Source: Vitis vinifera
Taxonomy: Eukaryota > Streptophyta > Magnoliopsida > Vitales > Vitaceae
NCBI RefSeq assembly: GCF_030704535.1
Contig: NC_081817.1
Coordinates: 139,001-203,000 of the forward strand
Reading direction: 5' to 3'
Length of the DNA: 64,000 bases
The notes under the pieces are model-generated. The model was not told the origin of the DNA. It did no database searches and saw nothing but the letters and a program-made list of their open reading frames with translations. Shown piece after piece: positions 14,350-63,688 of this stretch (positions are counted from its first letter, which is position 1; each line of letters opens with the position of its first letter). The position numbers were made by a program, and so were the translations under genes.

Positions 14350-17300
14350 AAGCAGTTATCGCACAATATTGTGTCTTAGGCGTATATACATGTTCTTCCC
14401 ATTAAATATTTTACTTTTAGCCTTAGAAATTGTAGCTTGGCTGTCACAATGTATAGACACAGATAGGGTTGGTCTCATCCATAAAGAAATATCTGCAAAG
14501 AGGTTTCTAAACCACTCAACCTCAAAACTTACCTTTTCTAAGACAATAAACTCAGTCTCCATAGCAAACCGAGTAATGCAAGTTTGTTTGGTAGACTTCC
14601 AAGAAATTGCACTTCCACCAAGGATGAAAACATATCCACTAGTGGATTTCATCTCATTTGAATTTGAGATCCAATTTGTATCACTAAATCTTTCAAGGAC
14701 ACTTGAAAATCCACTATAGCACAAACCATAGTTAATGGTGTCTCTCAAATACTTAAGGACTCTACGAACAACAGTCCAATGGTCTTGATCAGAACTTTAG
14801 GTGTACCGACTCAATCTACCTATTGCATAAGCAATGTTAGGTCTGATACAGTTCATTAAGTACATTAGGTTCCCTATGATATGAGCATACTCTATTTGGG
14901 CAACACTATGTTCTCTATTTTTCTTCATCTGTGAGTTGGGATCATAAGGAGTTGACATTGGTTTATAATCAATGTGTTCAAACTTCCTTAGGATCTTTTC
15001 AACATAGTGCTCTTGAGAAAGTTTAAGCCCATTAGGTGTTCTACTTATTTTAATTCCTAGATTCACCTCTGTCTTTCCCAGGTCTTTCATATCAAACTTA
15101 AAACCTACGAATTTCTTGGTCTCACACACAACCTCTAGGCTTGTTCTAAATATCAACATGTCATCAACATAAAGGCAGATGACTACACATGTGTTATCCT
15201 CATACTTGCTGTAGATACACTTATCAGCATCATTAATGAAATATCCATTAGTTACTAACATATGATCAAACTTTTTGTGCCACAGTTTGGGAGCTTGTTT
15301 TAACCTATATAGCGATTTAACCAACTTACACATTTTTTCTCCTTTTCTAGAACTACACAACCCTCAGGTTGTTCCATATAAATTTTCTCTTCCAAATTCC
15401 CATTCAAGAATGTAGTCTTGACATCCATTTGGTGTATCACCAAATTATGAATGGAAGCTAGAGCGATCAATACTCTAATTGATGTTATTCTAATTACAAG
15501 GGCAAATGTGTCAAAGTAATCTACATCATTCTTTTGTTTAAAGCGTTTGGCAACTAAATGAACTTTATACTTCTCTATAAACCCATCTTGTTTTAACTTT
15601 CTTTTAAAGATCTACTTACAACCAATAGTCTTTGCACCATGAGGTAAATCTACTAACTCCCATGTATGGTTTATACATGTTTGATTCGATTTCATTGTTA
15701 ATGGCCTTCTTCCAGAATGGTGCATCAGGAGAAGTTATAGTTTTTTTGTAGGATCTAGGGTTCTCATCTATTAGGAAGATGTAGAAACCATCTCCAAGGT
15801 TTTTTTTTTCCTATCTCTTTTACTCCTTCTAGGTTCAAATTCAAAAGGTTTTATAGACTTGACTCTACTTGTATTTTGAACTTGTTGTTCACCATTTAGT
15901 TTCATAGGAAAGATGTTTTCAAAGAAATTTGCATTCTTTGTTTCTATTATAGTATTAACATCTACAAGATTTTTTTCTGACTTAGTAACAAGAAACCTAT
16001 ATGTCACATTATTCTCAACATAGCCAATGAGCATTGCATCAAAGGTTTTAGGACCTAGTTTTCGTTTTTTAGGTTCAAGGGAAAGAACTTTAGCTAAACA
16101 CCCCCACACTTTTAGGTATGCTATATTAGGTGCACAACCTTTCCACAACTCATAAGGAGTTTTACCATTTTTCTTGTAAGGTATTCTATTTTGAATATGA
16201 CATGCAGATAGGATAGCTTCCCCCCACAAGTTCAAGGGTGCTCCTGAACTTACCAACATTGCATTCATCATTTCTTTTAAGGTCCTATTTTTCCTTTCTA
16301 TTACTCCATTAGACTCAGGAGAATAAGGAGTAGTTTCGTGAATGATCCCATGATCTTCACATAAAGAATTAAAGGGGTTAGACTCATACTCTCCTCCCCT
16401 ATCAGTTCTAAGCCTTTTAATTTTCTTACTTAGTTGAGTTTCCACTTTATTTTTGTACTTGATGAAAACATCTCTTGCTTCATCTTTGTTTCTCAAAAGA
16501 TATACCCTTGTATACCTTGAGTAGCCATCTATGAAAGTTATGTAGAATCATTTACCACCTCTAGTCATTGTATTTTTTAGGTCTCTTAAGTCACTATGTA
16601 TTAAACTTAGTAGATTTGATTCTTTTTCAACTGATTTGTAAGATTTCTTTGTGGTTTTAGATTCTACACAAGATTCACATTTTCCATGGATTCTAAGGAC
16701 AATTTAAGGATTAAACTCAATTCAACCATTTTCTTCATATATGAAAAGTTCACATGTCCTAGTCTATCATGCCAAATATCATAAGAATCAACTACGTAAG
16801 TAGAAGAAGAAGATGCATTATTATTGATAATATCATAAACATTCAACATAAATAAACCCTGATTACAATAGCCATTTCCCACAAATGCATCTTTCTTGGT
16901 TAAAACTATTTTATCAGAGTCAAACAAGATCTTCACTCCTGTTTTTCCAAGCAAAGATATTGACACCAAGTTCCAGCGGATATCTGGGACATGAAGAACA
17001 TCACTGAGGGCAAGCACTTTTCCAGAGGTTAACTTGAGGAGAACTTTCCCTTTGCCAATCACTGAAGTAGATCTATAATCACCCATGAATATTTGTTCAT
17101 CTCCTTCCTTTATAGTGGTATAAGAAGTAAATGCACTTTTATTTCCACAAATATGCCTAGTAGCCCCAAAGTCTACCACCCAATCCCTTCATATTGGTGA
17201 CCATGCTCACCTTAGAGGAGACTACTACTGAGATCACCTCTGTCTCTACTAGATTTGCCTTTGAATTGGACTTCTCAATTATCTTCCTATGGCGACATTG

Positions 17301-18060
17301 AGTTGCATGGTGTCCAGACTTGCCACAGACAAAGCATTTACCCCACTTTTTAATAGTTGGGTTATGGACCTTGTTTGATGCATTAGGTTTGGTCCTAGGG
17401 TTTTGCTTTCTAGGCCTATTGTTTTTGGGTTTGAGTTTTTCTTCTACTACATTAGCCTTAGAAGACAATTCTTTAGCTTTTTCAATATTGTCCCTATTTC
17501 GGTTTTGTTCCTCAATCCTAATATAGATTATGACTTCGTCTAGGGACATTTGTTTCATGTTATTTTTGTAGTCTTTCCAAGACTCTGGAAGAGTCTCTAC
17601 TAAATAACCAACCACAAAAGGTTTGGGTAATTTAATGTCTTCAATAACTAAGTCATTAATTAACAAGTGGTAGTCATGGATTTGAGATGATACATCTTTA
17701 TCCTCAGTCATTTGGAAATTTCTAAAATTCCCTATGACATATTTATGAGTTCCTAAATTTTCCAAAATATATTTTTTATTCATTGCATTCCAAATTTCTT
17801 TTGCAACTTTAAATTGACAATAAATATAAAAAAGTTCATTAGAAAGAGTACTCAAAATAGCATGCCTAACTTGTTTATTTCCAGTTTCCCAGGTTGGTAG
17901 CAAATGAGAACCATCTTCTAGTTTTGGGTTAGTCAAAATGTGTCCCAAGTTCACTACATCTTGCAGAGAAAACCCTTTTTTGCCATCTCTTAAAGAATGT
18001 CCCGTTGAAGGGATCAATTTTAGAGGTGGCAGGACAAGTGTGAACTAGGGAAGCTTTCAT
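14350..18060 (-). pseudogene. Outer Copia gag-pol, heavily decayed
   Basis: Gag starts at 18060 (MKASLVHTCPATSK) and shifts frame near 17960. It carries the zinc knuckle CFVCGKSGHHATQC near 17330. The protease motif reads DFG instead of D-S/T-G (near 17170), so the active site looks altered. A pre-integrase WHDRLGHVNF lies near 16770. Integrase (16496-15771) keeps RTDRGGEY and NGVIERKNRTL. RT (15360-14797) keeps YVDD. RNase H (14748-14356) keeps STSGYVFILGG. Frame breaks separate the pieces near 15770-15360 and elsewhere. The order is that of Copia. The decay agrees with the diverged LTRs. Confidence 0.92.
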
Positions 18061-28160: not shown

Positions 28161-30757
28161 TCAACTCCTCCTATCATTGGTTTCTCTATTAGGACAAGAA
28201 CGCCGATTGTGACCCAATTGCTTGCAAAGTCCACATGTTTGTGGAATCCTAGTTTCCCTTGCATCCATCTCATTATGCAAATGACTTGATTTTGGTCGAC
28301 CAGAAGTTAGCCGTTTCATTGAGTCTGAAGGCACAATTATCGGTCCATTATATTGAGGCCACTCCAACTCATCAAATATGGGATAAAACAAGGGAACCCA
28401 TGTTGATAGGTAAGCACGTGTGGTGTAATAACCTTGTACAAATTGACAAAATCAATTGCTCGACAATGACAAGCAGCAAGAATGTGTGAAAATGGGAATC
28501 CTAACAAAAATGTTTTGTTACATGTGCAAGACCCCGTTTGAAGGGTAACATGATATGTGCGAGGTTTCCTATTACTGCTTCCAATAGAGTGTCTAGTTTT
28601 AACATGAAAACGTCCCGCCACATGATCATACAAAAGAACCTCATGTGCACCCGCCTTAACAACTGTAGCCTTTATCTTGGCATCAATATGTGGAGTGAAT
28701 TCTTCACCTGAAGCGAGCCGACTGGCACCATGCTCCCGCCTGACTGTGAAATAATTGTTAACCTGATAAAAAGTTAACTGGACTAAAGCTGTTATTGGTA
28801 AGTTACGAGCACCCTTAAGGACACCATTAAAAACTTCAGACATATTAGTTGTCATAATCCCATATCTCCGCCCACCATCATATGAGAGTGCCCATTTTTC
28901 AAGAGGAATTTGCTCCAACCAATTTCTAGCCTCGGCATTTATCCGGCCAATTGTATCCATGTGAGAAATAAATTTTTTAACTTTACTCTCCATAGCAGCC
29001 CTACACATGAGATCCTTTAAAGTCTTATTTTTGAACTTTGTGTTCAAATTACTCGCTAAATGACGCAAGCAAAATCTATGACAAGCATTTGGCTGAGTCC
29101 ATCCCAAATATGTTTCATTAACAGCAGCTATAATGCCAAGATGACGATCAGAAATCAGACACAACCCTTTCCTTTGTGTTACTCCAACTCGGATACATGC
29201 CAAAAACCAACTCTAACTATCTGTATTCTCTCCTTCTGTAATGGCAAATGCAAGTGGAAACAATTGGTTATTACCATCACATCCCATAGCAATTAGCAAA
29301 GTCCCTTTATATTTTCCATACAAATGTGTCCCATCAATACTGAGAACTGGTCGACAGTGTGCAAACCCTTTAATAGATGGAGCGAATGCCCAAAAAACAC
29401 GCTGAAAAATTTCTTCATTCGGATTGTTTCCAAGAACCATTTTGGAATACATAATGCATCCAGGATTTGACTGCTCCAAGGCAAGGAAGAAACGAGGCAA
29501 CTCTGCATAAGACTTGTACCAATCACCAAATAATCGAGTCATTGCTTTCCTTTTTGCCTTCATTGCTTTTTGATAAGAAATTTGGTAACCAAATTGTTCC
29601 GTAACAACAGCTTGAATTGCAGCAACTATAATGGTCATTTCTGCCTTCACCAATGTTTCAATATACTTAGATACAAAGCTAGAATCCAACTGTGAATGAT
29701 CGTGATTAATACATGGATTGACACATGTATGAGGACCTTTGTACTTTGTGATTCTAAACATACCTGTATCTTTCACTGTCATTGCCCTTAGTCGCCATTG
29801 GCACTCTGGTGCTTTTTTACATTGAAGAACTAACACACTTGCATTTGATCTATAAACAGTAAACTCTTGGTGCGCCTTTATGGAAAACATCTTCACAGCA
29901 TGTTGCAAATATGATTTTGAGGAAAATATTTGGCCAATTGATAATTCTCCATCAACATTTCCTAAAGTTGGCTTTTTCCATGGAGTCCAATCACTTACAA
30001 CACAATTAATTGTCGCGTCCATATTTAAAAATTGTGGTGTAGGTGGCATATGGTATGAAACGGGTACAAATGTTTCCTGTAGGTTGTCATTAGAGATATT
30101 AAGTTGGGTACCATGTGGAGAGGCAACTAGTGATGTGTTTTCAACCTTAAACTCAACCTCAGGATTATTAGACCTATCACCAACTTCAAGGTTCACAAAT
30201 CTTGTGCTTTCACATTCCACAATTTGTTGGACCATCACCAAATCAATATTTTCTGTTTGACAACAATTTTCATCATCATTAGGTAAATGAATCTCATCTG
30301 TGTCGATTGCATCATCTCTATCATCTTCCTCATCTCTCTCATTTTCGTCATCAACATCAGTATCACCTGTTGATAATCGTGTCAAATGACCCATTTCATT
30401 ACTCAAATGATAATGGTTGGGAGTTTGCTCTATGAATAATTGAACTGAAGACATTCCATACTTCGATGGCACCAGTAGCATACGTGCAACTGTCCGATCA
30501 TTTCTCACCACTAATGGTTGAAATTTGTTCATTTCAGTTGGATGACGACATTTCAAGACTAACTGATAGTCTCTGTCAACACCAATGATATCATATATCA
30601 TCTTCAACAACTCCACAAAGGTCGTATGAATGGGCACATCTATAGGCTCAATCTCTACATTATTTCCAATATATCTCAAATCCGTTTCTGTCCTCAAAAT
30701 TTTTTCATTCCAATAATATAGCACTTCTACCGTGGAATCAGTCATAATTGCCTTCAC
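28161..30757 (-). pseudogene. MULE transposase, interrupted
   Basis: From 30757 an N-terminal domain (about residues 1-250, with an acidic stretch near 140-160) leads into the MuDR-type zinc-binding region (LQCKKAPECQWRLRA) and the MULE catalytic domain. First D is in VLSIDGTHLYGKYKG (near residue 475). Second D is in CLISDRHLGI. The E region is NMSEVFNGVLKGARN, with a CLRHL motif between. A TAG at 29213-29215 interrupts it in frame. The SWIM-type motif CTCNKTFLLGFPFSH lacks its third Cys (Phe in its place). A frameshift near 28390 separates the C-terminal zinc knuckle CGLCKQLGHNRRSC. Uninterrupted it would be about 865 codons. The element therefore cannot move itself. Confidence 0.93.
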
Positions 30758-47262: not shown

Positions 47263-47952
47263 TGTAGGGACCCCTCCTCACACGTGGTACACATCTCCTA
47301 ATGATACGTGGCACACATTCTCATCCGAATTTCCCCAAGAGTACACGTGGCGCGCTTCTCCTATTCGGACTCTCTCAAGGAGAGGTACACGACACTCACA
47401 AACATAACATCCGGACGACTGCCACAGCGCATCCGGACGACCGACATACACTATCCGGGTATGTTTGTCTGGATCATTGACTGAAGTAAGCAAGTCTTAT
47501 ACGTATCCACCACCTGCAGGGTGAAAGGACAAGAATGAAGTGACAACAAGTCACTTCCTATGATCACTTCCCACGATTTCTAACAGTCGCAGCAACTACC
47601 ACGATCTCTGTCAGCCGCCCGTAGGGTGATGATGACCCTGCCACCACCTAGTGTCATTATGACAACACAAAATATCTCTCTACCATTAAAGAGGGAAACA
47701 AAGCTTCTAATACTATATATATGAACCTTCACACAAAGAGGAAGACAAGTTTGTTATACTTGGTAAAAGACCAACTGATTTATCTCTATCTCTCTAACCA
47801 TGGCTGAAAAAACCATCGGAGGGTACGTCCGAACACCCTGTCCGGACGTCTTTTACAGGTAGTACGATTGAATCAAGAATCTATATTGGTTGAGATCGTG
47901 CGTCCATCCATTTGGCAACTACGTGGATCACCAGGGACGCGAGGCCTCAACA
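47263..47952 (+). mobile_element. Solo LTR related to the Gypsy element at 53193-63688
   Basis: 690 bp, TGTAGGGACCCCTCC to GAGGCCTCAACA, flanked by a perfect target duplication GATGC (47258-47262 and 47953-47957). Read on the plus strand it follows the minus-strand LTR of the Gypsy element: the same start, ACGTG boxes, TCCGGA motifs, TATATATA near 47712, CCAACTGATTTAT and CCATGGCT..AAACCATCGGAGGGT. It is clearly diverged. No internal sequence remains, so the element was lost by LTR-LTR recombination. Confidence 0.93.
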
Positions 47953-49920: not shown

Positions 49921-51690
49921 TTACAGCTGGGATGGTTGGAGAGGAAAACAGGTATCCCCACCACCAGTATTCCAAAGGAAAGTGGCATAGTTGGAAACAT
50001 GGTAAGGGTTTCCTGGCTCTGCTGCCATGGCTTGCAGAAATCTCTCCTCTGCTCCCCACAGATCCTTCCTTACCATCCATAAGAAGTTTGCATATTGGTT
50101 CAGTGCCTCTCCATCCTCTGGTTCCACCTCTACAGCCCTCTTGAAGCATTCCTCTGCCCTGTTAAACCCCAACCACACAAATTCATCAGCATATCACTAT
50201 ATATCAAACCCATGTGGCTAAAGAGCTTCTCTATCCTCCTAATTGTTTTTGAATTTGAAAAATGGGTAGCGAAAAGAGGCCAGGGTTCTAAACTGTGTCC
50301 ATGGATAGATATTGGAAGAGAGTATCACTCTACATTTTATTATGACACAGAAAATATGCAGAGAATGTAAAAGGCCCTTCAAGTAAATTGAGTTAGAAGT
50401 TCACCTGTCCTGATCACGAGCGAAAAGGCGGAGGAACTGCCCGTAATTACAGAACAGAAGGGGATTATTGGGATCCTCAGATATTCTAATCTGGTACAGA
50501 AGATCTGTTCTGAAATACTCTATGTAGTCATCTGCTTCAAGTTCCACGCCAACCGGAGAGACCATCCTTTGAATAGTCTCATGATCCAGAGCCTCAGCCC
50601 CTGATTCGGCCGCCATCCTTGAAGCTTCCTCTACCACTGAGTTCCACAAGTTCACCTCCTCCATGTGGGTCAGTTCCTCGCTCCCATACTCATCAGCAAC
50701 CACATTCGAACATAGGGTCATTGGCAATGGTCTAGTACTGATGCTAGTCTTCACAACCTCATTTGGAGAAGTGACTGATGATGTCTTAAGGAAAATTAAA
50801 GATTCGAAATTGGGTTGTGGTTGATTCTCTCTCTCTGTCACTGAGAAAGTCTCAGTGATCATACATGAGGTTGGAGGAATAGAAGTTTCTGCATTTTCAG
50901 TATCATCCATCAGTGAATATACTGTGAAATTCGCTAACAGAATCATCAAATACACCATGAGAGTTGGTGTTTTGGAGAACACCTGTTGAAAAAGCCATAC
51001 AAAGGATGCATGCAATTCTCTATGAACCCGGCTCAGAATCCCTTGTAGATCTTCACAGTAGAGAATTTCCTTTATCTGTAAGGAGTAGCTCTGCAGCTCC
51101 CTAATTATGAATACCATCGAAGAGAAGGCCTTCTTCACGGAACAATAAACAGAATCTTCTCCTTTTGTAACACCCTCTTCCCATTGTTGCTTCCTCTTAA
51201 TCATCCGCAGAGAGACAGGGATATCAAACCTAACCGCCTTTCTTTCGATGCTTGCCTGAATAATCTCATCTCTCCCTGGCCAGTTGGGCGGCTCTGGCCA
51301 AATTTCTAGCCAAGAAGGCCTCAAAGAGTCAAGCTTGGAAAAAGAAAATGATGCTGAAAACCCCATGTTGCTACTACCATCATCATCTTCATTGTACTTT
51401 GAATTTTCAAAGATTTTGGACACTGCATTCTTGTGGTCATTGTCACGGTAATCATCATGATCATCCAGTCTTGGAAAAAAACCATCATCAGAGAATTGAT
51501 CTAACTTGGCACAGCAAGCTCGGATAATGGCACAGCCTTTTGAGAGTGTAAGCCTGCGAGCTACAGCTCCATCATTGATCTTAAGTCTTGTGAATGGATA
51601 TAAACAAACAGTAGAACCCAATTTCTGAGAAGAAGAGATTGAATAAGGGGCAAAAGGGTGTGACTTTGGCCATCCAACCTGCACACCCAT
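49921..51690 (-). CDS. Tetratricopeptide-repeat-like protein with one membrane segment
   Basis: Two exons on the minus strand, 51690-50405 and 50158-49921, join in phase at an Arg codon and give 507 residues. The N-terminus (MGVQVGWPKSHPFAPYSISS) is Ser-rich and could be an organelle presequence. A conserved plant block SLRPSWLEIWPEPPNWPGRD lies near residue 122. A hydrophobic stretch TPTLMVYLMILLANFTVYSL lies near 241-260. The C-terminus holds TPR-type helices around NPLLFCNYGQFLRLFARDQD, AEECFKRAVEVEPEDGEALN and AEERFLQAMAAEPGNPYHVS, each with the W/Y-A-x-F-L and P spacing of the family. It belongs to a plant TPR family of unknown function; partner and location are inferred only. The leader is purine-rich on the plus strand ((GAA)n near 51790-51825). 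Confidence 0.9.
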
Positions 51691-53192: not shown

Positions 53193-53997
53193 TGTTGTCG
53201 CCTCGCGTATCCGATGGTCCACGTTGCTGCTATATGGATGGACACGTGATTCTCAACACACAAGGGGTTCTTGATTCAGTGGTTGCACCTGCAAAAGGCA
53301 TCCGGACAGGGTGTCCGGACGCACCCTCCGATGGTTTTATTAGCCATGGTGAGAAAGAGATATATAAATCAGTTGGCCTTTTTCTAGGTATCAAGAGGTT
53401 ACCAGGAGATCCCCTTTCTTCTTCGTGCGAAGGTATATATATCTAGCTTCAGGGGTACTGTTCCTCTCATTAATGGTGAGGAGATCTTTTCTGTTGTGAT
53501 GATGACAATAGGTGTTAGTAGGAGCACTATCATCCTATGAATGGCTGTCAGAGACTATGGTAGGTGATGCGGCCGTCAGAGATCGTGGGAAGCGATTATG
53601 CAGAATGATCGTGGGAAGTGACTTGCTGTCACTTCCTCTTGTCTTCTCATTCTGCAGGTGATGGGATGTGGGCCATGGCTGCTTGTTGTGATTGCGTGTA
53701 AGACTCGCTTTACTTTAATTGACCATCCAGAAGATTTATATCCGGATGGCTCATGCTGACTATCCGGATGTGTTGTGGAGACTATCCGGATGTGTACGCT
53801 CTGCCAGCGTCGTTTGCTCTTCCTTGGATAGGAGAAGATGAAACGTCGTTTGCCTTTCCTTGAGGCGGTCCGGATAGGATGTCTACACCATGCATATCCT
53901 TAGGGGAATCCGGATAATGATGGTCCGGCTGATAACACGTGCCACGCGTCACTATGAGCTGCGTGCCACGTGTTTCCCAAGGGGAGGGGTCCCTACA
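53193..53997 (-). repeat. Gypsy 3' LTR
   Basis: 805 bp. On the minus strand it begins TGTAGGGACCCCTCCCC and ends GGCGACAACA. It holds several TCCGGA palindromes, ACGTG boxes near the U3 start and a TATATATA near 53445. Confidence 0.97.
53936..53972 (-). promoter_or_regulatory. ACGTG-box cluster at the start of U3
   Basis: CACGTG occurs at 53936-53941 and 53967-53972, each within a GCCACGTGT or AACACGTGCC context, with an ACGCGT between them. This is the core bound by plant bZIP factors (G-box/ABRE type). The same cluster is present in the 5' LTR at about 63627-63663 and, diverged, in the solo LTR at 47281-47349. Confidence 0.6.
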
Positions 53998-54012
53998 TTG
54001 CCCCCCTTTTTA
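53998..54012 (-). promoter_or_regulatory. Polypurine tract of the Gypsy element
   Basis: The minus strand reads AAAAAGGGGGGCAA immediately before the 3' LTR. Confidence 0.85.
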
Positions 54013-54226
54013 ACTTGCCTATTTTGCCCAAAAAATGGGCAGGTTAAAAATAACTGGCTTTTGAAAACTGAAGAAGTCCCTTCGTCTGACTGGGCCACGT
54101 GGCGAGTGGGGGTGCGGAAGCCAAAAAGGCATTTATGACGAGCCGCCGACCCTGCGTATCCCCAGACAATATGTCGTTTCAATGATAACATGGCTGTTGG
54201 TTTGGCTTTCCGAGGGGCTGTCCTGC

Positions 54227-54235
54227 TATAAATAG
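54227..54235 (+). promoter_or_regulatory. TATA box of the antisense gene in the Gypsy element
   Basis: TATAAATAG on the plus strand, 230 bp after the LTR and about 470 bp before the ATG at 54703. The stretch between would be a long T-rich leader. Confidence 0.65.
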
Positions 54236-54702
54236 GGTACTGTACCTCTTTTTGTATTTTTTCCTACTGCATTCTCTTGAGAGTCTTTCTTCTTACTGCT
54301 TTTTCTACGCCCTTTGCTTTTCTGAGAAAAAAACTCCGAAAGCTCTTTTGTACCAGTGCTTTTGTATCGCGACTTTGTTGGTTTGCTGCTGGTGATTTTG
54401 TATCAAGGCGGTACCCGTTCTTCTTCTTCGGTGCTGTATTTGGTACGTATCTCTTTGCTACTGCCGTTCCTTTGGTTGCGTTTGCTGGTTCTTTACACTT
54501 GCTTTCTGGCTTGCTTGGGCATTGTTTTGGACGAGTCGTTTGCAATTGTTGTTGAATGTTGGTACTTTGTTGTTGTTTGGAGGGGTTTTTGAGGGGTTTT
54601 TCTGACGGCTTTGAGTTAGGGTTTGTGTATTTTCTGATTGCTTGGTCTGAACCGTTTGCATTGTTTTTGCGTGTAGATTTTGCTTTGGCTTTGTGGTAAG
54701 AA

Positions 54703-57139
54703 ATGGCTCCAAAAAAGACTGTTTCGTCTGTCCGGGTCAGCGAGGCTAGCGAAAAGGCGATAGACAAATTAAATGCGAAGGAGTTCCGGGAGCGATTCCT
54801 GATCCCCCATGACGTATTGATAGACCTGGTGAACGAGGAGGCGGCTATGCCTACTGAGAAAGGTGGAAAAAACGCTATCCTCTTCACAAAGGAACAATTC
54901 AGCGCGGGGCTCCGGTTCCCTCTGCCGGCGTTGTTCAAGGAATTCCTCCACTTCTCTCAAATTCCCCCTATCTTTATTCACCCCAACCTTGTCCGGGTGC
55001 TGATGGGATGCAGCATCATCAACATGTTGTACAGCCTCGACCTGACGCTACTGGAAGTGTTCTTTGTCTATTCCCTGAAGAAAGCAAAGAATGATATCTT
55101 CAGTGTGTCTGCTCACCTGCCCTCCCTTCAAATGGTGACAGAACTGCCAGATTCGACAAAGGGAAGGGCGAAGGGGCTGGTGGCAGTCTGGGGTGGATGG
55201 GCGGGGCTATCGCAGCATCCGTCGAGGCCTTTTTCTCCGAATTATACCCTAAAAATTCCGGGTAATCTTGTTTTGCGATTTTTTTTTTTTTTTTTTTTAT
55301 CCAGATTTTGCTTTGCTGATTTTTTCTGATCTTTCCGGGCGGAATTCTCACCTTTTGTTGCTGACAATGCAGGTTTGGAATTGAGGGGCCACCTTGTGGA
55401 TTGGGTGGAAAAGGCATCCTTCGCCTGTGTCTGCAAATTATTTGAAATAGATCCCAAGGAGAGGGCCTACAAAACATTGCTCTCGGCGCGGAATTTGACA
55501 GAGGTCGTCCGGGAGCCCCAGGAATATGTTATCAACATCCTTCCTAGGAAATTGGCAAAGGATGAGATAGTGCCTGGGGAGCATTATACAGTGAAAGAGC
55601 TCCCCCTCTATCAGGAAGCTAAAGAAGCTGACGCTGAAAGGCGGCGAAAGCTCCTGGAGGATAGAGATCAGAAAAAGACTGAAGGCACTATCCGGAAGGC
55701 TCCCGGACAGAAGCGGGGTCCGGACTCCCCTCCGAAGAAAACTTCAGGAAAAAGGGGGAAGCTGGTGAAGAAGCATGGGAAGGATGCGAAGGAACCCACT
55801 CCTCCCAAGGAGTTTCCTCCTCCACAAACTACCTATGAGGGGGAAGTAATGATAGAGGAGCCAGTAAATGCTGCTCCGCACTCTATCTCAAGCGGCCCCG
55901 GGCGCATGTCGGGGTTGAATCACTCAGGTCCCTCCTTAGTCGCGGCTGCGCGTCTAGCCAACGTGGCTGAGGAAGCTGCATCTATCAACCATCCGGGCAA
56001 CCTCAATCCGGATGCAGCTGAAACGGCCCCGTTGGAGGAAGCGGGGGCAGAAAGCCAAAGTCAGCCTTCCGACGACCCGGATCGCCTGGCTATAGTCCTG
56101 GTGAAAGGGCCTCCCCTCAAGAAGCCGCGTTTGACGCGCGATCTACAGTCCGGACTCTTTGAGCGGCTTCAAGAGCGGCAGCAAGAGATTGAAATTAGCT
56201 GCGCTTCTGCCCATGACGCTCATCCGGATGGAGGCGAGGTGGAGATGGCTACTGAGACCTCAGCCGTTCCGGCAATAATTCCGGCTGAGGATGCATCCGG
56301 ACCTATGTGCCCGGACGAAAATATGGGGGCTCCGATTCCGGGACACGAGCTACCCTCTCCTTCCTCATCCGAGGAGGAATCTGCTGATGATGCCGTTCCC
56401 GCTAGCCCTTTTAGCTACGCGGAGTTGGAAGCTAAGTTAAAGCAGATTACTCTTGACTGGAAAGCCATCAAGCCCTCTGCTAAGATGTTTGATATGATAG
56501 AAACGGTACGCCGTTGTCTTGTGTTTTTGCTTTTTGACTTTTTGTTGCACTGATGTGTTTGTTGTAGTATGATTTATGTTTTTGCTTTTCTTGTTTGTGT
56601 GTTAGCTGGTGAGGGGCCTCCGCAGCATGTCTCAACAACACGCTCTTTTTACTCAGCTGCTGCAGACCGCAGACTATATGAGGACCTTCTCCTCTCGGCA
56701 CCAAGAGATTGAAAATCAACTGCGTCTGAGAATGGAGGAGGCTGAGGCCAGTCTATCCACCATGCGAGAGGAAAATGAAGCCCTCCGGGTGGAGTTGGCT
56801 GAGGCAAAGGGTCAAGAAGAATCAACTGCGGGCCGCCTTCATGAGGCGGAGGGTGAGGCAGCCCGGCTAAGGGATGAATTGAGTCGACTCCGGACAGAAG
56901 TTTTGAATGAAAAGAAACAGAAGGAAGACTTGCAGCTGCGTCTGGATGTGCAAAAAGAGGAACTTGAACGGGAGTTTGCTGTGGAAAGGGAGGAACTTGC
57001 AGCGGATTACCAGAGACAAGTGGATGATACATTTATCTTTGGGTATCGCTGCTGCATGAAGAAGAACGGTATAAAGCGAGATACCCCTTCAATTCCTCCA
57101 AGTGAAGAAAAGAAGCTCCATGAGAAACCTGCTCCCTGA
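54703..57139 (+). CDS. Antisense accessory gene of the retrotransposon (gypsy-type transposon domain, coiled coil)
   Basis: This gene is on the strand opposite to gag-pol. Three exons, 54703-55261, 55373-56505 and 56606-57139, have GT-AG borders and matching phases and encode 741 residues. The start MAPKKTVSSVRVSEASEKAI follows AAGAA-ATG. Residues about 60-185 (ILFTKEQFSAGLRFPLPALF, HPNLVRVLMGCSIINMLYSL, then a VWGGW motif) match the layout of the plant 'putative gypsy type transposon' domain. The middle is a long disordered part rich in P, K and E with basic clusters (KKTSGKRGKLVKKHGK) that could be nuclear signals. Exon 3 is a long heptad-rich coiled coil. A TATA box precedes it and AATAAA (57236) follows. 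The function is unknown; chromatin or RNA binding is only a guess. It could also be a captured host-type gene. Confidence 0.85.
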
Positions 57140-57235
57140 TAGTTTATCTCTTCTTGCAATTTTTCTGCTGTAATTTTTCCTTCTGTATATTTTTGTGGTC
57201 CGGATGTCTCTTTGTAATTTACATTTACTCATATC

Positions 57236-57241
57236 AATAAA
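57236..57241 (+). terminator. Polyadenylation signal of the antisense gene
   Basis: AATAAA 97 bp after the TGA of the antisense gene and 37 bp before the convergent pol stop codon. Confidence 0.6.
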
Positions 57242-57277
57242 ACTTACTTCTTTCTCATTTGCACTTGTGTACACTTT

Positions 57278-60200
57278 CTACTGATAATACTGCTTTAAAT
57301 TAAACACATTCCATGGTCTGAGTAACGGAGTGCCATCTAGCTTTTGTAAATGATAGGCTCCATTTTCATTTGCCTTAGACACTATGTAGGGTCCTTCCCA
57401 ATTGGCTTGGAATTTTCCTGCGCCTACTTCAGCAGTATTTTCAAAAACTTTTCTAAGTACTAGCGTACCATTTTTGAAGTTTCTGGGCCTGACTTTTCGA
57501 TTGTAATGCGCTGATGCTCTTTGTTGATAATCTGCCATCCGGATGGATGCGCTTTCTCTGACTTCGTCTGCCCAGTCCAAATTTCTTCCTAGTTCCGTGT
57601 CGGCATCTTTTTGCTTTGCTGCATCAGTCCGGATAGTAGGAAGACCTATTTCAGTGGGAATGACTGCATCCATTCCATATGTGAGGGCAAAAGGAGTATT
57701 TCCTGTTGGTCGTCCGGGTGTGGTCCGATAGGCCCACAGGACGCCGGGTAGTTCCTCCACCCACCTCCCTTTGGCTCGCTCCAGCCTTTTCTTCAAGGCA
57801 TTGACTAGAGTTTTGTTTGTGGCTTCCGCCTGGCCATTGCTTTGAGGATAACGTGGCGTGGAGTATGAATTCCGGATATTCAGTTCCGAATAGAAATTCC
57901 TGAATGCAATGCTGTCAAATTGTGGACCGTTGTCAGCTATGATGATTTGGGGAATCCCATAACGGCAAACAATGTTCTTCCATACGAACTTGGTAACATC
58001 TTTATCTTTGATGCTTGCATATGCTTCAGCTTCTACCCATTTACTGAAGTAATCAGTGGCGACAAGAAGGAATTTCTTTTGGGCGGGTGCTGCTGGGAGG
58101 GGTCCCACTATGTCCATGCCCCACTGCGCGAAAGGCCATGGGCTTGAGACCGATTTTAATGCGATTGATGGTATATGTGGAATGGGAGCGTATCTTTGAC
58201 ATTTATCACATTTTTGGACATATGCTGCCGCGTCTTTCTTCATTGTTGGCCAATAGTATCCTTGTGAATGAGCTCTATGTGCTAGGGATCGTCCTCCCGT
58301 ATGATTTCCGCATACTCCTTCATGTAACTCAGCTAACACATACTGGGCCTCTGAATGCCCAAGACAGCGAAGATAAGGCCCTGTGAAGGATCGCTTGTAC
58401 AGGTGCCCCCCAATTAGGGTGAAACGGGCAGCTTGCACCCGGATTTTGTGCGCTCGTTTAGGATCTTCGGGTAAAGTTCCTGTCCGGAGATATTCTGCAA
58501 TATCATGCGTCCATTCTTGATCATCCGCTTGGTCTGCTTCAATGGAGTTGCAAGTGGAATTTTCTGCGACAGAGGGATTGGCTTGTACATGGATAGGCAA
58601 TAGAATGGCTTCTCTGATGGGGAGGGAAGCAGCTATACCGGCCAAGGCGTCAGCGCGCCCGTTGTCAGCTCGCTTAATTTTTTCAATTGTCCACTCGGTG
58701 AATTGCTGTAAGGTGCTTCTTACTTTGGCCAAGTATCGCGCCATGCGTGAGTCCTTAGCCTCATATTCTTTCTGGACATGCCTTACCACTAGTTGCGAGT
58801 CGCTGTAGATTCGGAGTTTGGAGACGGATAGCGCAAGAGCGAGGTCCAATCCGGACAGGATGGCCTCGTATTCTGCTTCATTGTTAGACGCGGAGAATCC
58901 CAACCGGATGGCCTGCTCCAGATGTTCCCCAGTTGGGGACTGCAATAAGAGCCCAACTCCAGAGCCTGATGAGCGTGAGGCTCCGTCAACTCGTAGAGTC
59001 CACCACTCCTGTTCACCTGATTCGTGGTGCTGGTCGGGTCTTCGTGAATATTCGAGCACGAAGTCGGCCATTACTTGGCCTTTTTTGGATAATCTGGGTT
59101 GGAATTCGATTCCAAATTCGCTCAATTCGATGGCCCATTGTAGCATTCGCCCAGTTAAATCTGGCTTGTGTAGAATGCTACGAAGGGGCTGGTCGGTCAG
59201 TACAATCACTGGGTGAGCTTGAAAATAGGGGCGGAGCTTTTGAGCAGCACTTCGAAGAGCTAAGGCTGTTAGCTCCATTTTTGAATACCTGGTTTCTACA
59301 TCTGCCAAAGCTCTGCTGACATAGTAGACAGGTTTCTGCTCCTTTGGCGAAGGGCAGCGGAATAGAACGGCGCTGATTGCCCATTCTGAGACAGCTAAAT
59401 ACATATATAGCTTCTCCTTTGGCATGGGGCTGCTCAAGATGGGCGGATGCATAAGACAGTGTTTAATTCTTTCCAACGTGTTTTGGCAATTGTCCGTCCA
59501 TCCCTGCGTTCCAGCTTTTCGTATCGCTAAGAAGAAGGGTCGCAACTCGTCAGTGAAGCGGGCTATAAAACGTCCTAACGCAACGAGCTTGCCTGTGAGG
59601 CGTTGTAACTCCTTTTTGTTCCTGGGAGGAGGTGTCTCCATGACTGCTTTGACTTGATCCGGGCTGACTTCTATGCCTCTTTGGCTGACCATAAATCCCA
59701 GAAATTTGCCAGCACTCACGCCAAAGGCACATTTGGAAGGATTTAGCTTCATGTCATACTTTCGCAAGAGGTAAAATACTTCTTGTAAATGGAGGATATG
59801 CTGCTCTCGAGTTTTGCTTTTAACCACGATATCGTCAATGTATACCTCGACCGAGCGGCCTATCAGAGGTTTGAAGATTTTAGTCATCAATCTTTGATAC
59901 GTGGCGCCAGCGTTTTTGAGTCCGAATGGCATGACTTTGTAGCAATAGAGGCCGTGTGGCGTTATGAATGCTGTTTTTTCTTCGTCATCCGGAGACATGG
60001 GAATTTGGTGATAGCCGGAGAAGGCATCCAAGAAAGAGAGCATCCCTTGCCCGGAAGTGGAATCCACAATTTGATCTATCCGCGGTAAGGGAAAACTGTC
60101 TTTTGGACATGCATTATTGAGATTGGTGTAATCAACACAGACTCGCCATTTGCCCTCTTTCTTTGGTACCACTACTACATTTGCCAACCAATCCGGATAA

Positions 60201-60541
60201 GATACCTCTCTGATGAATCCGGCTTCCAACAATTTGTTAATTTCATCTTGGATAACTCTTTGTCTATCCGGGTGAAATCGTCTAATCTTCTGTCGAATGG
60301 GTCTGGCTGCTGGAAAGACGTTAAGCTTGTGAGAGGCGATAGAGGGATGAATTCCCTTCATATCCGAATGTGTCCATGCGAAGATGTCATGGTTACTTCG
60401 AAGGATATTCTGTATGCTCTGGGTTTCTTCTTGTGTCATGAGGGAACTGATGTTTGTGAGGTGATCATTCTCTTCTGAGATTTGGATTGTTTGTAAGGGA
60501 TCTGCTACCGGGGGATCCTTGTCCACCGGACCCAATAATTG
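57278..60541 (-). CDS. Gypsy pol: RT, two RNase H domains and integrase
   Basis: Continues the gag-pro frame after the TAG at 60544-60542 and is itself uninterrupted for about 1087 codons. RT has the FPLPRIDQIVD block, LSFLDAFSGYHQI and the active site YIDD. The RT-associated RNase H follows (LYMYLAVSEWAISAVL). A second, archaeal-type RNase H follows (LRVDGASRSSGSGVG, NNEAEYEAI, IYSDSQLVV, ADALA). Integrase has the HHCC zinc finger (CGNHTGG ... CDKCQRYA) and a D-D-E core (GMDIVGPL, ADNGPQF, NGQAEATNK). The C-terminal part ends NVFNLKQYYQ. All catalytic residues I looked for are present, so pol may be active if translated. Confidence 0.95.
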   Translation of the reverse strand, partial: QLLGPVDKDPPVADPLQTIQISEENDHLTNISSLMTQEETQSIQNILRSNHDIFAWTHSDMKGIHPSIASHKLNVFPAARPIRQKIRRFHPDRQRVIQDEINKLLEAGFIREVSYPDWLANVVVVPKKEGKWRVCVDYTNLNNACPKDSFPLPRIDQIVDSTSGQGMLSFLDAFSGYHQIPMSPDDEEKTAFITPHGLYCYKVMPFGLKNAGATYQRLMTKIFKPLIGRSVEVYIDDIVVKSKTREQHILHLQEVFYLLRKYDMKLNPSKCAFGVSAGKFLGFMVSQRGIEVSPDQVKAVMETPPPRNKKELQRLTGKLVALGRFIARFTDELRPFFLAIRKAGTQGWTDNCQNTLERIKHCLMHPPILSSPMPKEKLYMYLAVSEWAISAVLFRCPSPKEQKPVYYVSRALADVETRYSKMELTALALRSAAQKLRPYFQAHPVIVLTDQPLRSILHKPDLTGRMLQWAIELSEFGIEFQPRLSKKGQVMADFVLEYSRRPDQHHESGEQEWWTLRVDGASRSSGSGVGLLLQSPTGEHLEQAIRLGFSASNNEAEYEAILSGLDLALALSVSKLRIYSDSQLVVRHVQKEYEAKDSRMARYLAKVRSTLQQFTEWTIEKIKRADNGRADALAGIAASLPIREAILLPIHVQANPSVAENSTCNSIEADQADDQEWTHDIAEYLRTGTLPEDPKRAHKIRVQAARFTLIGGHLYKRSFTGPYLRCLGHSEAQYVLAELHEGVCGNHTGGRSLAHRAHSQGYYWPTMKKDAAAYVQKCDKCQRYAPIPHIPSIALKSVSSPWPFAQWGMDIVGPLPAAPAQKKFLLVATDYFSKWVEAEAYASIKDKDVTKFVWKNIVCRYGIPQIIIADNGPQFDSIAFRNFYSELNIRNSYSTPRYPQSNGQAEATNKTLVNALKKRLERAKGRWVEELPGVLWAYRTTPGRPTGNTPFALTYGMDAVIPTEIGLPTIRTDAAKQKDADTELGRNLDWADEVRESASIRMADYQQRASAHYNRKVRPRNFKNGTLVLRKVFENTAEVGAGKFQANWEGPYIVSKANENGAYHLQKLDGTPLLRPWNVFNLKQYYQ

Positions 60542-60547
60542 CTATTG
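60536..60547 (-). promoter_or_regulatory. Candidate leaky stop (readthrough) between Gag-Pro and RT
   Basis: On the minus strand the codons are CAA-TAG-CAA-TTA, with the same frame open on both sides. This fits the UAG-CAR-YYA context known from tobamovirus replicase readthrough in plants. The alternative is a simple mutation of CAG, as for the other gag stops. Confidence 0.5.
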
Positions 60548-62827
60548 GTCGCGCGCAATGCTAGGTTCAGGGGGAGATGCATCTTCCTGGTTAGCGACTG
60601 CTTCACGTGCTATTTGGTAGCACTGGCGAGCGGCTAACTGGCTGCCATACAAGTCAGTTTGCCCTTCATTGGTGAGGAAACTCACCATTTGATGATATGT
60701 GGAGGGGATGGCTTTCATGTAGTGAAGCCATGTGCGTCCCAAGATGATATTGAAGGGTGACAATTCTTGCACCACCGAGAATTGCACGTTGAGAGTGACT
60801 GGTCCAGCTCGAACCGGCAGTATAATGTCTCCTAAGGATGTTGTTGATGATCCGTTGAATCCAGATAAGATTCGTCCGGGGTTTTCGAGACCCGCGAGAC
60901 TGTGTCCCATATGGCCAATGACTGATGCTTGTACTAGATCGGCTGAACTGCCTGGATCAACCAAGATACGTCTTACATCAAAATCTCCTATTTCTAGAGA
61001 GAGGATGAGGGCGTCGCGATGTGGCTGTAGCGTCCGGGTGGGATCTACTGGTGGGAAAATGATTGTCCCATCTATGGGGCGAGGGCCCTCTCCAGTAAGA
61101 CCCGGCCGGATGGAATTAATGCGTTCGCGTATTGACGCGGCCCGCAGCAATTTCTGCCTTTTACGCCTGGAATCGTATTCCTCGTCAGACGGGCCCCCAT
61201 TGATATAGTTTATCACAGCCTTGGAGGCGACTGGGGCCCTCGGGGCCTCAGAGTTATGATGCTGAGATACGTCCCTTCCTCCAGTATCTGAGCGGAGGTA
61301 CTGTTTTAAATGTCCTGCTTTGATGAGCCTTTCAACTAGATACTGGAGGGATCGACACGTCTCTGTTGTATGACCATGGTCTTTGTGGAAGGCGCATTTC
61401 TTGCTGCGGTCTCTTATGGATGGGTCCGTTTCGAGGGGTCTAGGCCACCTGAAGTCGGACAACCCTTGGATCATTGGGAGAAGTTTTTCGTATGATACGG
61501 ATAGGGGTGTGACGGGCGGCCTATTCGGACGACTCGGCCCGTCCTGTCTCCGGTCAACTGGTTTTGGACGGTCCGGAGGCTTGGCATGCCTGTCCGCGTT
61601 ATCTCTAGAAGCCCGTCCGGCAACCAAAACTTGTTGAGTGGCTGCACGCACGTCATCTTCGAGCATTGAATATTTGTTAGCACGTCTGAACAAATCGTCC
61701 ATCGTTGTGGGAGGCTTTTTTGCCAGTGATTCAAAAAATGGAGTGCCTGGACAAATGCTTCTCTTGAAGATTTGTAGGACAGCATCCATGCTGCAAACCT
61801 CTATTTGGAGTACGGCTTGGCCAAATCGTTTCACAAATTCCCTCAAGGATTCGTTGTCTCTCATTTTTATGTTCTGGAGGGTGCTGATATTCTGCTTGTG
61901 TCGAGCAGAGCACAAGTACTGTCCCACGAATGCTTCAGAGAGGTCCCTGAAATTGTCAATAGAGTTAGGAGGTAGGCGATGAAACCATGAGAGGGCCTGC
62001 CCTTGAAGGCTGGCAGGGAATACTTTGCATAATAATGCATCGTTGCCAATATCGAGCGTCATAAGCTATCAATAGTGCATGATGTGATCGAAGGGATCGT
62101 TGGTCCCATCGTATGTGGAAAACTTTGGTACGAGGAATCCTCTTGGGGGCTCGTAATGGGTGATATGAGAGCAAAAGGGCGTGGAGAGCATGTCATCCAG
62201 CCTTTTGCTGATGGAGCCAATGGGTGGCTCGTTTGGGAGGTTTCTCCCAGCTGGTCGTTCCGCTAGGTGTGAATGAACGTTCCGCATCGCTAGGGTGACC
62301 ATGGGGTCACGATGCGGAGGTACGTTCTGCACCATGGGAGCGATCATAGGATCGGGGCGTGGCGCCCGGGTTGTGGCTGCTGGTGGCCTTGATCTCCCAG
62401 GCTCTTGTGGGCCTAGTCTTGCGCGCATAGAACTTGACAACTGTGATTTTCTATCACGCTGTCTTTTTGCTGAGAAATGAGTGGAATCTGAGCTTTCCTC
62501 ACGGGGAGCTCGAGGCATGGGTGTGCGTGGCTCATGGGGCCTTGCGTTGTACGTTCCTGGGATAGCTCCTGTTGACCCAGGATATATTGATTCTGGCTCT
62601 GGCTTTGAGTTTGCCACCTAGCCTTTTGAGCGCTGACGACGAGGAGGTCCTGATGTTGAGGCTTGAATGCGTAACACAGCGTTTTCTTCCCTTAACCTCT
62701 CCGTCTCCTAGAGGAGAGCTTTTAGCTGTTTTTCGCTTGCCAACTGTCTTTTTTCGATGGCTTGACGCCATTCGTGATTATCTTCTTCCTCTCTACCAGA
62801 TGATCGACTTTGGGAAGGTGTGGCCAT
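60542..62827 (-). pseudogene. Gypsy gag-pro, interrupted by stops
   Basis: Begins MATPSQSRSSG at 62827, with a short coiled-coil-like segment. It continues in one frame to the TAG at 60544. The capsid part has ALSWFHRLPPNSI and the REFVKRFGQA region. A modified zinc knuckle CAFHKDHGHTTETC lies near 61390. The aspartic protease motif ILVDPGSSADL lies near 60960. In-frame stops are TAG 62710-62708, TAG 62620-62618 and adjacent TGA/TAG at 62071-62066. Because every segment is in the same frame as pol, a single Gag-Pol frame of about 1850 codons is implied for the family. This copy could not make full Gag. Confidence 0.92.
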
Positions 62828-62863
62828 CTTTGCCAGTGACTGAATCAAAATAAAAAGTAAAAG

Positions 62864-62882
62864 TTTCCCACAGACGGCGCCA
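62864..62882 (-). promoter_or_regulatory. Primer binding site of the Gypsy element
   Basis: The minus strand reads TGGCGCCGTCTGTGGGAAA one base after the 5' LTR, a common primer site in plant Tat/Athila-group Gypsy elements. Confidence 0.85.
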
Positions 62883-62883
62883 A

Positions 62884-63688
62884 TGTTGTCGCCTCGCGTA
62901 TCCGATGGTCCACGTTGCTGCTATATGGATGGACACGTGATTCTCAACACACAAGGGGTTCTTGATTCAGTGGTTGCACCTGCAAAAGGCATCCGGACAG
63001 GGTGTCCGGACGCACCCTCCGATGGTTTTATTAGCCATGGTGAGAAAGAGATATATAAATCAGTTGGCCTTTTTCTAGGTATCAAGAGGTTACCAGGAGA
63101 TCCCCTTTCTTCTTCGTGCGAAGGTATATATATCTAGCTTCAGGGGTACTGTTCCTCTCATTAATGGTGAGGAGATCTTTTCTGTTGTGATGATGACAAT
63201 AGGTGTTAGTAGGAGCACTATCATCCTATGAATGGCTGTCAGAGACTATGGTAGGTGATGCGGCCGTCAGAGATCGTGGGAAGCGATTATGCAGAATGAT
63301 CGTGGGAAGTGACTTGCTGTCACTTCCTCTTGTCTTCTCATTCTGCAGGTGATGGGATGTGGGCCATGGCTGCTTGTTGTGATTGCGTGTAAGACTCGCT
63401 TTACTTTAATTGACCATCCAGAAGATTTATATCCGGATGGCTCATGCTGACTATCCGGATGTGTTGTGGAGACTATCCGGATGTGTACGCTCTGCCAGCG
63501 TCGTTTGCTCTTCCTTGGATAGGAGAAGATGAAACGTCGTTTGCCTTTCCTTGAGGCGGTCCGGATAGGATGTCTACACCATGCATATCCTTAGGGGAAT
63601 CCGGATAATGATGGTCCGGCTGATAACACGTGCCACGCGTCACTATGAGCTGCGTGCCACGTGTTTCCCAAGGGGAGGGGTCCCTACA
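62884..63688 (-). repeat. Gypsy 5' LTR
   Basis: 805 bp, read as identical to 53193-53997. It is followed by the target duplication GCAAC. Confidence 0.97.

What the first reader, a model, noticed from the sequence alone, without database searches (positions are those of the whole stretch)
54227..57241. Complete spliced gene on the antisense strand of a Gypsy retrotransposon
Between the 3' end of pol and the 3' LTR, facing the other way, lies TATAAATAG, an ATG, three in-phase exons (741 codons) and AATAAA. The spliced frame has a transposon-associated domain and a long coiled coil. It shows no stops, while gag in the same element has four, so this gene may have been kept intact by selection. 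Antisense extra frames are known in the plant Tat group, but their role is unsolved. A spliced, self-promoted gene convergent with pol could regulate the element (antisense RNA) or supply a protein needed for its spread.
Basis: partly seen in the sequence, partly recalled or inferred. Interest (0 to 1): 0.85.

Follow-up and report, generated by a model that had tools for sequence, protein, structure and literature searches.

The report
Spliced antisense gene in plant retrotransposon
A plant jumping gene carries, on its opposite strand, what looks like a real three-exon protein gene that evolution keeps intact; genes of this type are known, but its introns, the measured selection and a short DNA word repeated through the element give a testable idea of what it does.

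Summary
A young Gypsy element (LTRs 805/805 identical, TSD GCAAC) carries a convergent gene between pol and the 3' LTR: TATAAATAG, ATG 54703, three in-phase exons (741 codons), AATAAA 57236-57241. Related copies in the same genome show that it is a gene. GT-AG stands at both introns in 43 of 43 copies mapped; intron 1 varies from 82 to 175 nt without frame preference (99 copies), while exons 1 and 3 keep one length in the copies read. dN/dS is 0.14-0.32 across groups (0.23 at dS 0.7); four of the other five frames give about 1 or more. All 42 scored pol copies have its exon 1 beside them. It is a divergent TRP28 antisense gene of the Tat/Retand lineage, a known class (Grande gene23, Silene Retand, 2025 survey). 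Added here: conserved introns, measured selection, and a palindrome, TCCGGA, the element's commonest hexamer (30 seen, 2.8 expected), enriched beyond coding need and turning over in position between subfamilies. I infer a nuclear accessory protein; that it reads TCCGGA, as VANC proteins read their own transposons, is bold but testable. No RNA data were available: expression and splicing are untested.

The parts
53193..53997 (-). 3' LTR of the element (pol orientation is minus); holds 7 TCCGGA sites, three of them 22 bp apart
   Evidence: 805 of 805 identical to the 5' LTR; sites and tandem unit
54227..54235 (+). TATA-like box TATAAATAG of the antisense gene
   Evidence: sequence; identical in 40 of 40 A copies; the 4 B and C copies were not fetched that far upstream
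54703..55261 (+). exon 1, with the divergent TRP28 (PF04195) region at codons 62-109
   Evidence: 559 nt in 44 of 44 copies read; PF04195 below cut-off for the window and weak in 9 of 9 members, best E 0.0087; 7 of 150 scored copies have a stop
55262..55372 (+). intron 1, GT-AG, with a poly-T run
   Evidence: GT-AG in 43 of 43; 82-175 nt in 99 copies, no frame preference
55373..56505 (+). exon 2, with basic clusters that look like nuclear localisation signals (by eye)
   Evidence: 102 of 109 scored copies span it in one frame; 17 of 109 have a stop; dN/dS 0.12-0.26 between subfamilies
56506..56605 (+). intron 2, GT-AG
   Evidence: GT-AG in 43 of 43; 79-108 nt in 90 copies, 78 of them 100 nt
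56606..57139 (+). exon 3, coiled-coil-like region and a C-terminal stretch nearly unchanged between subfamilies
   Evidence: 534 nt in 43 of 43 copies mapped (L047 could not be mapped); 19 of 150 scored copies have a stop; weak coiled-coil Pfam matches
57236..57241 (+). AATAAA, possible poly(A) signal
   Evidence: present in 40 of 40 A copies
57278..60535 (-). pol: RT, RNase H, second RNase H, integrase; converges on the antisense gene
   Evidence: Pfam; 42 of 42 scored copies have the antisense exon 1 at 2.1-2.6 kb
60542..62883 (-). gag-protease region; gag carries four in-frame stops in this copy, which the 13 best-matching copies lack
62884..63688 (-). 5' LTR

Best explanation
This is a spliced accessory protein gene of a Tat/Retand-lineage retrotransposon, encoded antisense to gag-pol. 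Shown: the reading frame is maintained by purifying selection in all three exons, and both introns keep GT-AG sites while their lengths drift. Follows from the anatomy: introns survive each round of copying because the element moves through its sense RNA, in which they are reversed and cannot be spliced; none of the copies measured lacks an intron. Inferred: a promoter just inside the 3' LTR makes an mRNA that ends near the pol stop codon; the product is a nuclear, probably dimeric coiled-coil protein (Grande gene23 is nuclear, per the reviews) that helps the element in the nucleus. Most likely role: a regulator that recognises the element's own DNA, with TCCGGA as the candidate site, raising or protecting its transcription.
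For: dN/dS A1-A1 0.27, A2-A2 0.20, A1-A2 0.144, A1-C 0.23, A2-C 0.24, C-C 0.32 (one pair); single exons 0.11-0.34. Of the other five frames of the same alignment, four give 0.95-1.51; the fifth, which shares third positions, gives 0.28-0.38; each has about 19-40 stops. GT-AG 43 of 43 at both introns. Introns measured in 99 and 90 copies, none under 79 nt. Same elements: dN/dS 0.23 for the gene (7 elements), 0.29 for pol (8 elements). 42 of 42 pol copies have the gene's exon 1. TCCGGA: 30 against 2.8 in shuffles, damped z 13.8, commonest hexamer; 7-9 per CDS against 1.4-1.7 in synonymous shuffles in the four copies tested, 7 against 1.4 in pol; LTR sites kept in 92.7% of A1-A2 comparisons against 75.9% for other CG-centred hexamers.
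Against: No RNA evidence: transcription, splicing and translation are not shown. The TRP28 match is below Pfam's cut-off (weak in 9 of 9 members), and the exon 1 model is too poor to use (pLDDT 36.5), so no DNA-binding fold is shown. TCCGGA is not enriched in gag (1 against 0.7) and absent from 53998-54702, where the antisense promoter would lie; the window outside the element also has a mild excess (9 against 3.1), with 3 sites in a Copia-like relic. TCCGGA lies largely in coding sequence, unlike VANC motifs, which are mainly non-coding. Nothing links protein and motif except that both are maintained in one element.
Confidence: 0.7

Rival explanations
1. Nuclear accessory protein acting after transcription: it carries the cDNA complex into the nucleus or guides integration, and does not bind TCCGGA.
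For: A role in nuclear entry, by comparison with retroviral accessory factors, is discussed in PMC7264820; basic clusters and a charged coiled-coil-like exon 3 fit (by eye).
Against: Gives no reason for the TCCGGA enrichment and turnover.
Confidence: 0.3
2. The antisense transcript itself regulates the element through dsRNA and small RNAs; the frame is incidental.
For: The antisense mRNA would overlap the 3' part of the sense RNA; PMC7264820 keeps this possibility open.
Against: Selection is on amino acids, and exons 1 and 3 keep one length in the copies read while introns drift.
Confidence: 0.07
3. Chance open frames or a decaying captured host gene.
For: Stops occur in 7 of 150, 17 of 109 and 19 of 150 scored copies of exons 1, 2 and 3, and 6 of 44 copies read were not intact as mapped.
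Against: dN/dS far below 1 over dS 0.7 and in all three exons; pol has stops in 9 of 42 copies; exon 1 stands beside 42 of 42 pol copies.
Confidence: 0.02
4. TCCGGA is a binding site of a host transcription factor that the element exploits; the antisense protein is unrelated to it.
For: Density is highest in the LTRs, 7 in 805 bp, where promoters lie. Some plant LBD factors prefer similar sites (recalled, not checked; the one paper search, listing only, gave nothing on point).
Against: Sites are also enriched in pol and in the antisense coding sequence beyond coding need, which a promoter role does not require.
Confidence: 0.4

Closest known systems
Antisense TRP28 (PF04195) ORFs of Retand-lineage elements (PMC11963269)
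   Same: Position between pol and 3' LTR, orientation, long protein, TRP28-like region; 5 of the 6 conserved residues named there are found at one constant offset (G69, P73, L82, P94, N95; offset fitted by eye)
   Different: Three exons; that survey called ORFs with ORF Finder and drew those over 600 bp (plus shorter ones with TRP28), and its text has no word starting 'intron' ('splic' and 'exon' occur twice each, and the places shown to me are reference titles). TRP28 score here is below the Pfam cut-off. 'Vitis' does not occur in its text, though the grape element Gret1 was one of its RT queries. Its supplements were not seen
Maize Grande gene23
   Same: Antisense, between pol and 3' LTR, own promoter, nuclear protein (as told in PMC7264820, and PMC11963269; the 2013 paper itself was not read)
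   Different: Whether gene23 has introns, and its sequence likeness to this gene, were not tested
VANC anti-silencing proteins of VANDAL transposons (PMC5735166, abstract and passages)
   Same: In my reading: a TE-encoded protein and a short motif dense in its own element, partly in tandem repeats that differ between related elements
   Different: VANDALs belong to the Mutator-like DNA transposons (recalled); their motif is mainly non-coding; no sequence relation was tested; binding and methylation loss are shown for VANC and not here
HTLV antisense genes such as HBZ (mentioned in PMC11963269, and PMC7264820)
   Same: Antisense gene at the 3' end with a nuclear product
   Different: No sequence comparison was made; the HTLV antisense promoter is inside the 3' LTR, whereas the TATA box here lies outside the LTR

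Membership tests
Tat/Retand lineage | second (archaeal-type) RNase H between RNase H and integrase | tested here: met
   RVT_3 at residues 516-632, between RT_RNaseH 372-474 and rve 801-897; rule from PMC6317226. That RVT_3 stands for the archaeal type is recalled
Tat/Retand lineage | long pol-3'LTR region (2,933-6,566 bp), LTR 315-1,194 bp, TSD usually 5 bp | tested here: met
   3,280 bp from 53998 to 57277, LTR 805 bp, GCAAC; ranges from PMC11963269
Tat/Retand lineage | antisense ORF between pol and 3' LTR | tested here: met
Tat/Retand lineage | RT phylogeny places it with Retand | not tested
   no tree with named Retand RTs was built; Ogre shares the RNase H order
TRP28 / Transposase_28 (PF04195) | score above Pfam gathering cut-off 26.2 | tested here: not met
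   15.4 bits, E 0.022 for the window; 9 of 9 members match at E<=1, best E 0.0087
TRP28 / Transposase_28 (PF04195) | conserved residues G21, P25, L34, P46, N47, F55 of PMC11963269 | tested here: inconclusive
   5 of 6 present at offset 48, fitted by eye; the sixth is C103 (residues)
Grande gene23-like gene | transcribed from its own promoter, nuclear product | not testable with these tools
   TATA box kept in 40 of 40 A copies; no RNA or cell data
VANC-like sequence-specific anti-silencing | motif dense in own element, partly in tandem | tested here: met
   but not mainly non-coding as for VANC
VANC-like sequence-specific anti-silencing | protein binds the motif and removes DNA methylation | not testable with these tools
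   none
VANC-like sequence-specific anti-silencing | sequence relation to VANC | not tested
   membership is not claimed

The most novel reading that the evidence does not exclude
An LTR retrotransposon with a self-recognition system: the spliced antisense gene makes a nuclear protein that binds the palindrome (R)TCCGGA(Y), which the element keeps at high density in its LTRs and body, and so shields or switches on its own family only, as VANC does for VANDAL transposons. It would give the TRP28 antisense genes of plant Tat elements their function.
Probability: 0.22. Interest if true: 0.85.

Novelty: new variant of a known kind. Interest (0 to 1): 0.57.

Why it matters
The function of the antisense genes in plant Tat/Retand elements is called unknown in both reviews read here. 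Here the question becomes testable: the frame is under selection comparable to pol, the product appears to be spliced (so surveys that call unspliced ORFs would misjudge its length and ends), and a concrete candidate target, TCCGGA, is named. If a retrotransposon encodes its own sequence-specific regulator, that would be a second case of a strategy that the papers read here describe for VANDAL transposons.

Tried and rejected
Structure of exon 1: AlphaFold2 with 9 rows gave pLDDT 36.5 and was not used for any fold search. PDB by sequence: 0 matches up to E 1. The Pfam PF04195 model over the genome found 1 match among 150 scored candidates, so it misses this family and cannot count it. A leader intron (about 54452-54677) was looked for by divergence and length: the leader is more divergent than the exons and nothing could be concluded. 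Open frames of 621, 621, 623 and 627 aa in four A1 copies looked like intronless copies; their intron 1 is 123, 123, 129 and 141 nt, divisible by three, and happens to be open. A few other long frames were not resolved, because those copies were not read: exon 1 at C2:9686472 (654, with a stop), exon 3 at C15:20876319 (604) and C15:655799 (499); loss of an intron is not excluded there. The Genetica survey of extra ORFs is not held. The paper searches for introns in these antisense genes listed no paper on point; subscription papers are not covered, so priority for the introns is not established.

Rows dropped: of 44 copies fetched, 6 were left out of dN/dS (L047 could not be mapped; L050, L073, L074, L079, L080 have frame breaks in exon 2 as mapped), so both copies of the ~90% subfamily (B) are missing from it. 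Of 109 exon 2 matches, 7 partial ones were left out of length counts; single-frame matches have lengths divisible by three by construction. When typing the exon 3 table into I left out a few matches, partial ones mainly. The LTR test used 29 of the 30 upstream stretches. Of 140 copies asked for were given; one search gave 4 (L079 and L080 of B, L081 and L082 of C), all in shorter stretches. Search tables score only the best candidates and so favour intact copies. Six A1 copies lack the usual stop codon of exon 3; the exon 3 table shows six frames of 178 instead of 177 codons.

Full report
What is there. The finding lies inside a complete LTR retrotransposon on the minus strand, 53193-63688. 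The two LTRs (53193-53997, 62884-63688) agree at 805 of 805 positions and are flanked by GCAAC, so the insertion is young. Pol (57278-60535, minus) has RT, RNase H, a second RNase H-like domain (RVT_3) and integrase, the order that PMC6317226 gives for Ogre and Retand elements. The genome that holds the window, G000, has 495.6 million bases in 21 contigs; it is unnamed. I take it for a flowering plant, perhaps grapevine, from recall only.

The gene. On the plus strand, between the end of pol and the 3' LTR, are TATAAATAG (54227), ATG (54703), exons 54703-55261, 55373-56505 and 56606-57139, and AATAAA (57236-57241). The exons give 741 codons without a stop. The AATAAA ends 36 bases short of the pol stop codon, so the mRNA would overlap the sense genomic RNA but hardly, if at all, the pol coding sequence.

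Copies. A search with exon 1 listed 150 scored copies (of 829 candidates) in three identity groups: about 94-100% (A), 85-91% (B) and 69-76% (C). All 42 scored pol copies have an antisense exon 1 at 2.1-2.6 kb from the pol end. Stops occur in 7 of 150 exon 1, 17 of 109 exon 2 and 19 of 150 exon 3 matches (counted by hand), against 9 of 42 in pol. The tables score only the best candidates and so favour intact copies. I read 44 copies of the gene: 40 A, 2 B, 2 C.

Introns. GT-AG stands at both introns in 43 of 43 copies that could be mapped. Exon 1 is 559 nt in 44 of 44, exon 3 is 534 nt in 43 of 43. In the larger table some exon 1 matches differ by whole codons. Intron 1 was measured in 99 copies (82-175 nt; 25, 42 and 32 copies with remainder 0, 1 and 2 after division by three) and intron 2 in 90 (79-108 nt; 78 of them 100 nt). 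Exon 2 of the intact copies is 1133, 1139, 1151 or 1190 nt, steps of three. No measured copy has lost an intron; three copies with long unread frames were not resolved. Retained introns are what copying through sense RNA predicts, because they are reversed in that RNA; the logic is that of the antisense-intron indicator genes used in retrotransposition assays (recalled).

Selection. On 38 intact copies (22 A1, 14 A2, 2 C; A1 and A2 are split by exon 2 length) Nei-Gojobori dN/dS is 0.27 (A1-A1), 0.20 (A2-A2), 0.144 (A1-A2), 0.23 (A1-C, dS 0.71), 0.24 (A2-C) and 0.32 (the one C-C pair). Six of the 44 copies were left out, both B copies among them. Codon bootstraps for three single pairs give 0.17-0.26, 0.20-0.31 and 0.07-0.17. 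Read in the other frames, the A1-C alignment gives 0.95, 1.32, 1.13, 0.38 and 1.34, each with about 19-40 stops; the 0.38 frame shares its third positions with the true one. In the same young elements the gene has 0.23 (7 elements) and pol 0.29 (8 elements). The gene is thus held about as tightly as pol.

The protein. Exon 1 matches PF04195 (TRP28) in 9 of 9 members, weakly (best E 0.0087), and below the gathering score for the window. Five of six residues that PMC11963269 lists as conserved are present at one offset fitted by eye. Exon 2 has basic clusters near codons 276, 308, 319 and 436 (by eye they resemble nuclear localisation signals). Exon 3 matches coiled-coil families weakly. The last 40 or so residues are almost unchanged between A and C. 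The structure model is too poor to use.

A repeated word. TCCGGA is the commonest hexamer of the element: 30 sites, against 2.8 in 60 dinucleotide shuffles, and the first of the 64 palindromes by far. Counting one LTR there are 23: 7 in the LTR, 7 in the antisense gene, 1 in its 3' UTR, 7 in pol and 1 in gag; none lies in 53998-54702, and gag is not enriched (1 against 0.7). The rest of the window has 9 in 53.5 kb, against 3.1 in shuffles; three of these lie in a solo LTR of a related element. With the protein sequence held fixed, the antisense CDS has 7, 8, 9 and 9 sites in the four copies tested against 1.4-1.7 expected, and pol 7 against 1.4. Across the 38 intact copies the count is 6-9. 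Between the window's copy and the two C copies four of seven sites are shared; each C copy has five elsewhere. In the LTRs of 22 A1 and 7 A2 copies (29 of the 30 at hand) the sites are unchanged in 92.7% of comparisons, against 75.9% for other CG-centred hexamers and 79.4% for the rest (comparisons are not independent). Three LTR sites are 22 bp apart; the solo LTR (47263-47952, 72% alike where it aligns) has two sites 22 bp apart in the part that does not align. Two Copia-like relics and a MULE-like relic in the window, named by eye, have 3, 0 and 0 sites. So the density of the word is kept while positions turn over, as expected for a binding site read many times along the element.

How it may work. 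Shown: conserved spliced frame, conserved splice sites, maintained word. Inferred: transcription from the TATA box, splicing in the cell, nuclear location (by analogy with Grande gene23, as told in PMC7264820, parts 1 and 2 of 3). The role is a choice: a regulator that reads the element's own DNA is my first choice because it also explains the word; a factor for nuclear entry or integration is nearly as likely; antisense RNA alone is unlikely. The link between protein and word is a hypothesis, and a host factor may be its reader. VANC proteins of VANDAL transposons are the model: VANC21 binds a short motif dense in its own elements, VANC targets often form tandem repeats, and VANC induces methylation loss (PMC5735166, abstract and passages).

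What is known. Vicient 2025 (PMC11963269; [quoted passage not shown] its text holds no word starting 'intron' and no 'Vitis', though Gret1 of grape was a query; its supplements were not seen. The 2020 review by the same author and Casacuberta asks readers to look for antisense and spliced transcripts. Neumann 2019 (PMC6317226, passages) found Transposase_28 in 23% of Retand elements. So the class is known; the spliced form, the selection measured on it and the word are what this case adds, with the limit that subscription papers could not be searched (searches; listings).

Noticed in passing
60536-60547 (minus strand): Gag-protease and pol are in one frame, separated by a single TAG in the context CAA TAG CAA TTA, which fits the CARYYA type of leaky stop known from plant viruses (motif per PMC3542737, one passage). 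It is the same in 8 of 8 loci, and 41 of 42 scored pol copies have the same 1087-codon open frame, the other 1084. Pol is probably made by readthrough (inference).
   Followed up: partly
62068-62710 (minus strand): Four in-frame gag stops, two of them in adjacent codons, in a copy with identical LTRs. In the 182-aa piece between them 13 other copies score the same as the window's own and have frames of 792 or 843 codons; two of the other 84 scored copies end at or one codon from the adjacent pair. So many nonsense changes with so little else is odd as random decay; hypermutation, recombination or an assembly fault are possible. Unexplained.
   Followed up: partly
47263-47952: Solo LTR-like stretch of a related element in opposite orientation, 72% alike over its aligned parts, with three TCCGGA sites.
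   Followed up: partly
55279-55298: Poly-T run in intron 1; intron 1 length ranges over 82-175 nt in 99 copies. That the run drives the variation is a guess from four introns printed.
   Followed up: partly
54452-54677: Possible leader intron upstream of the ATG (GT and AG seen by eye); divergence data did not decide.
   Followed up: partly
7636-11366, 14797-18017, 28337-30757: ORFs that look like two Copia-type relics and a Mutator-like transposase (by eye; no family search).
   Followed up: no
50401-51690 (minus strand): 429-codon ORF without any Pfam match up to E 0.1.
   Followed up: no
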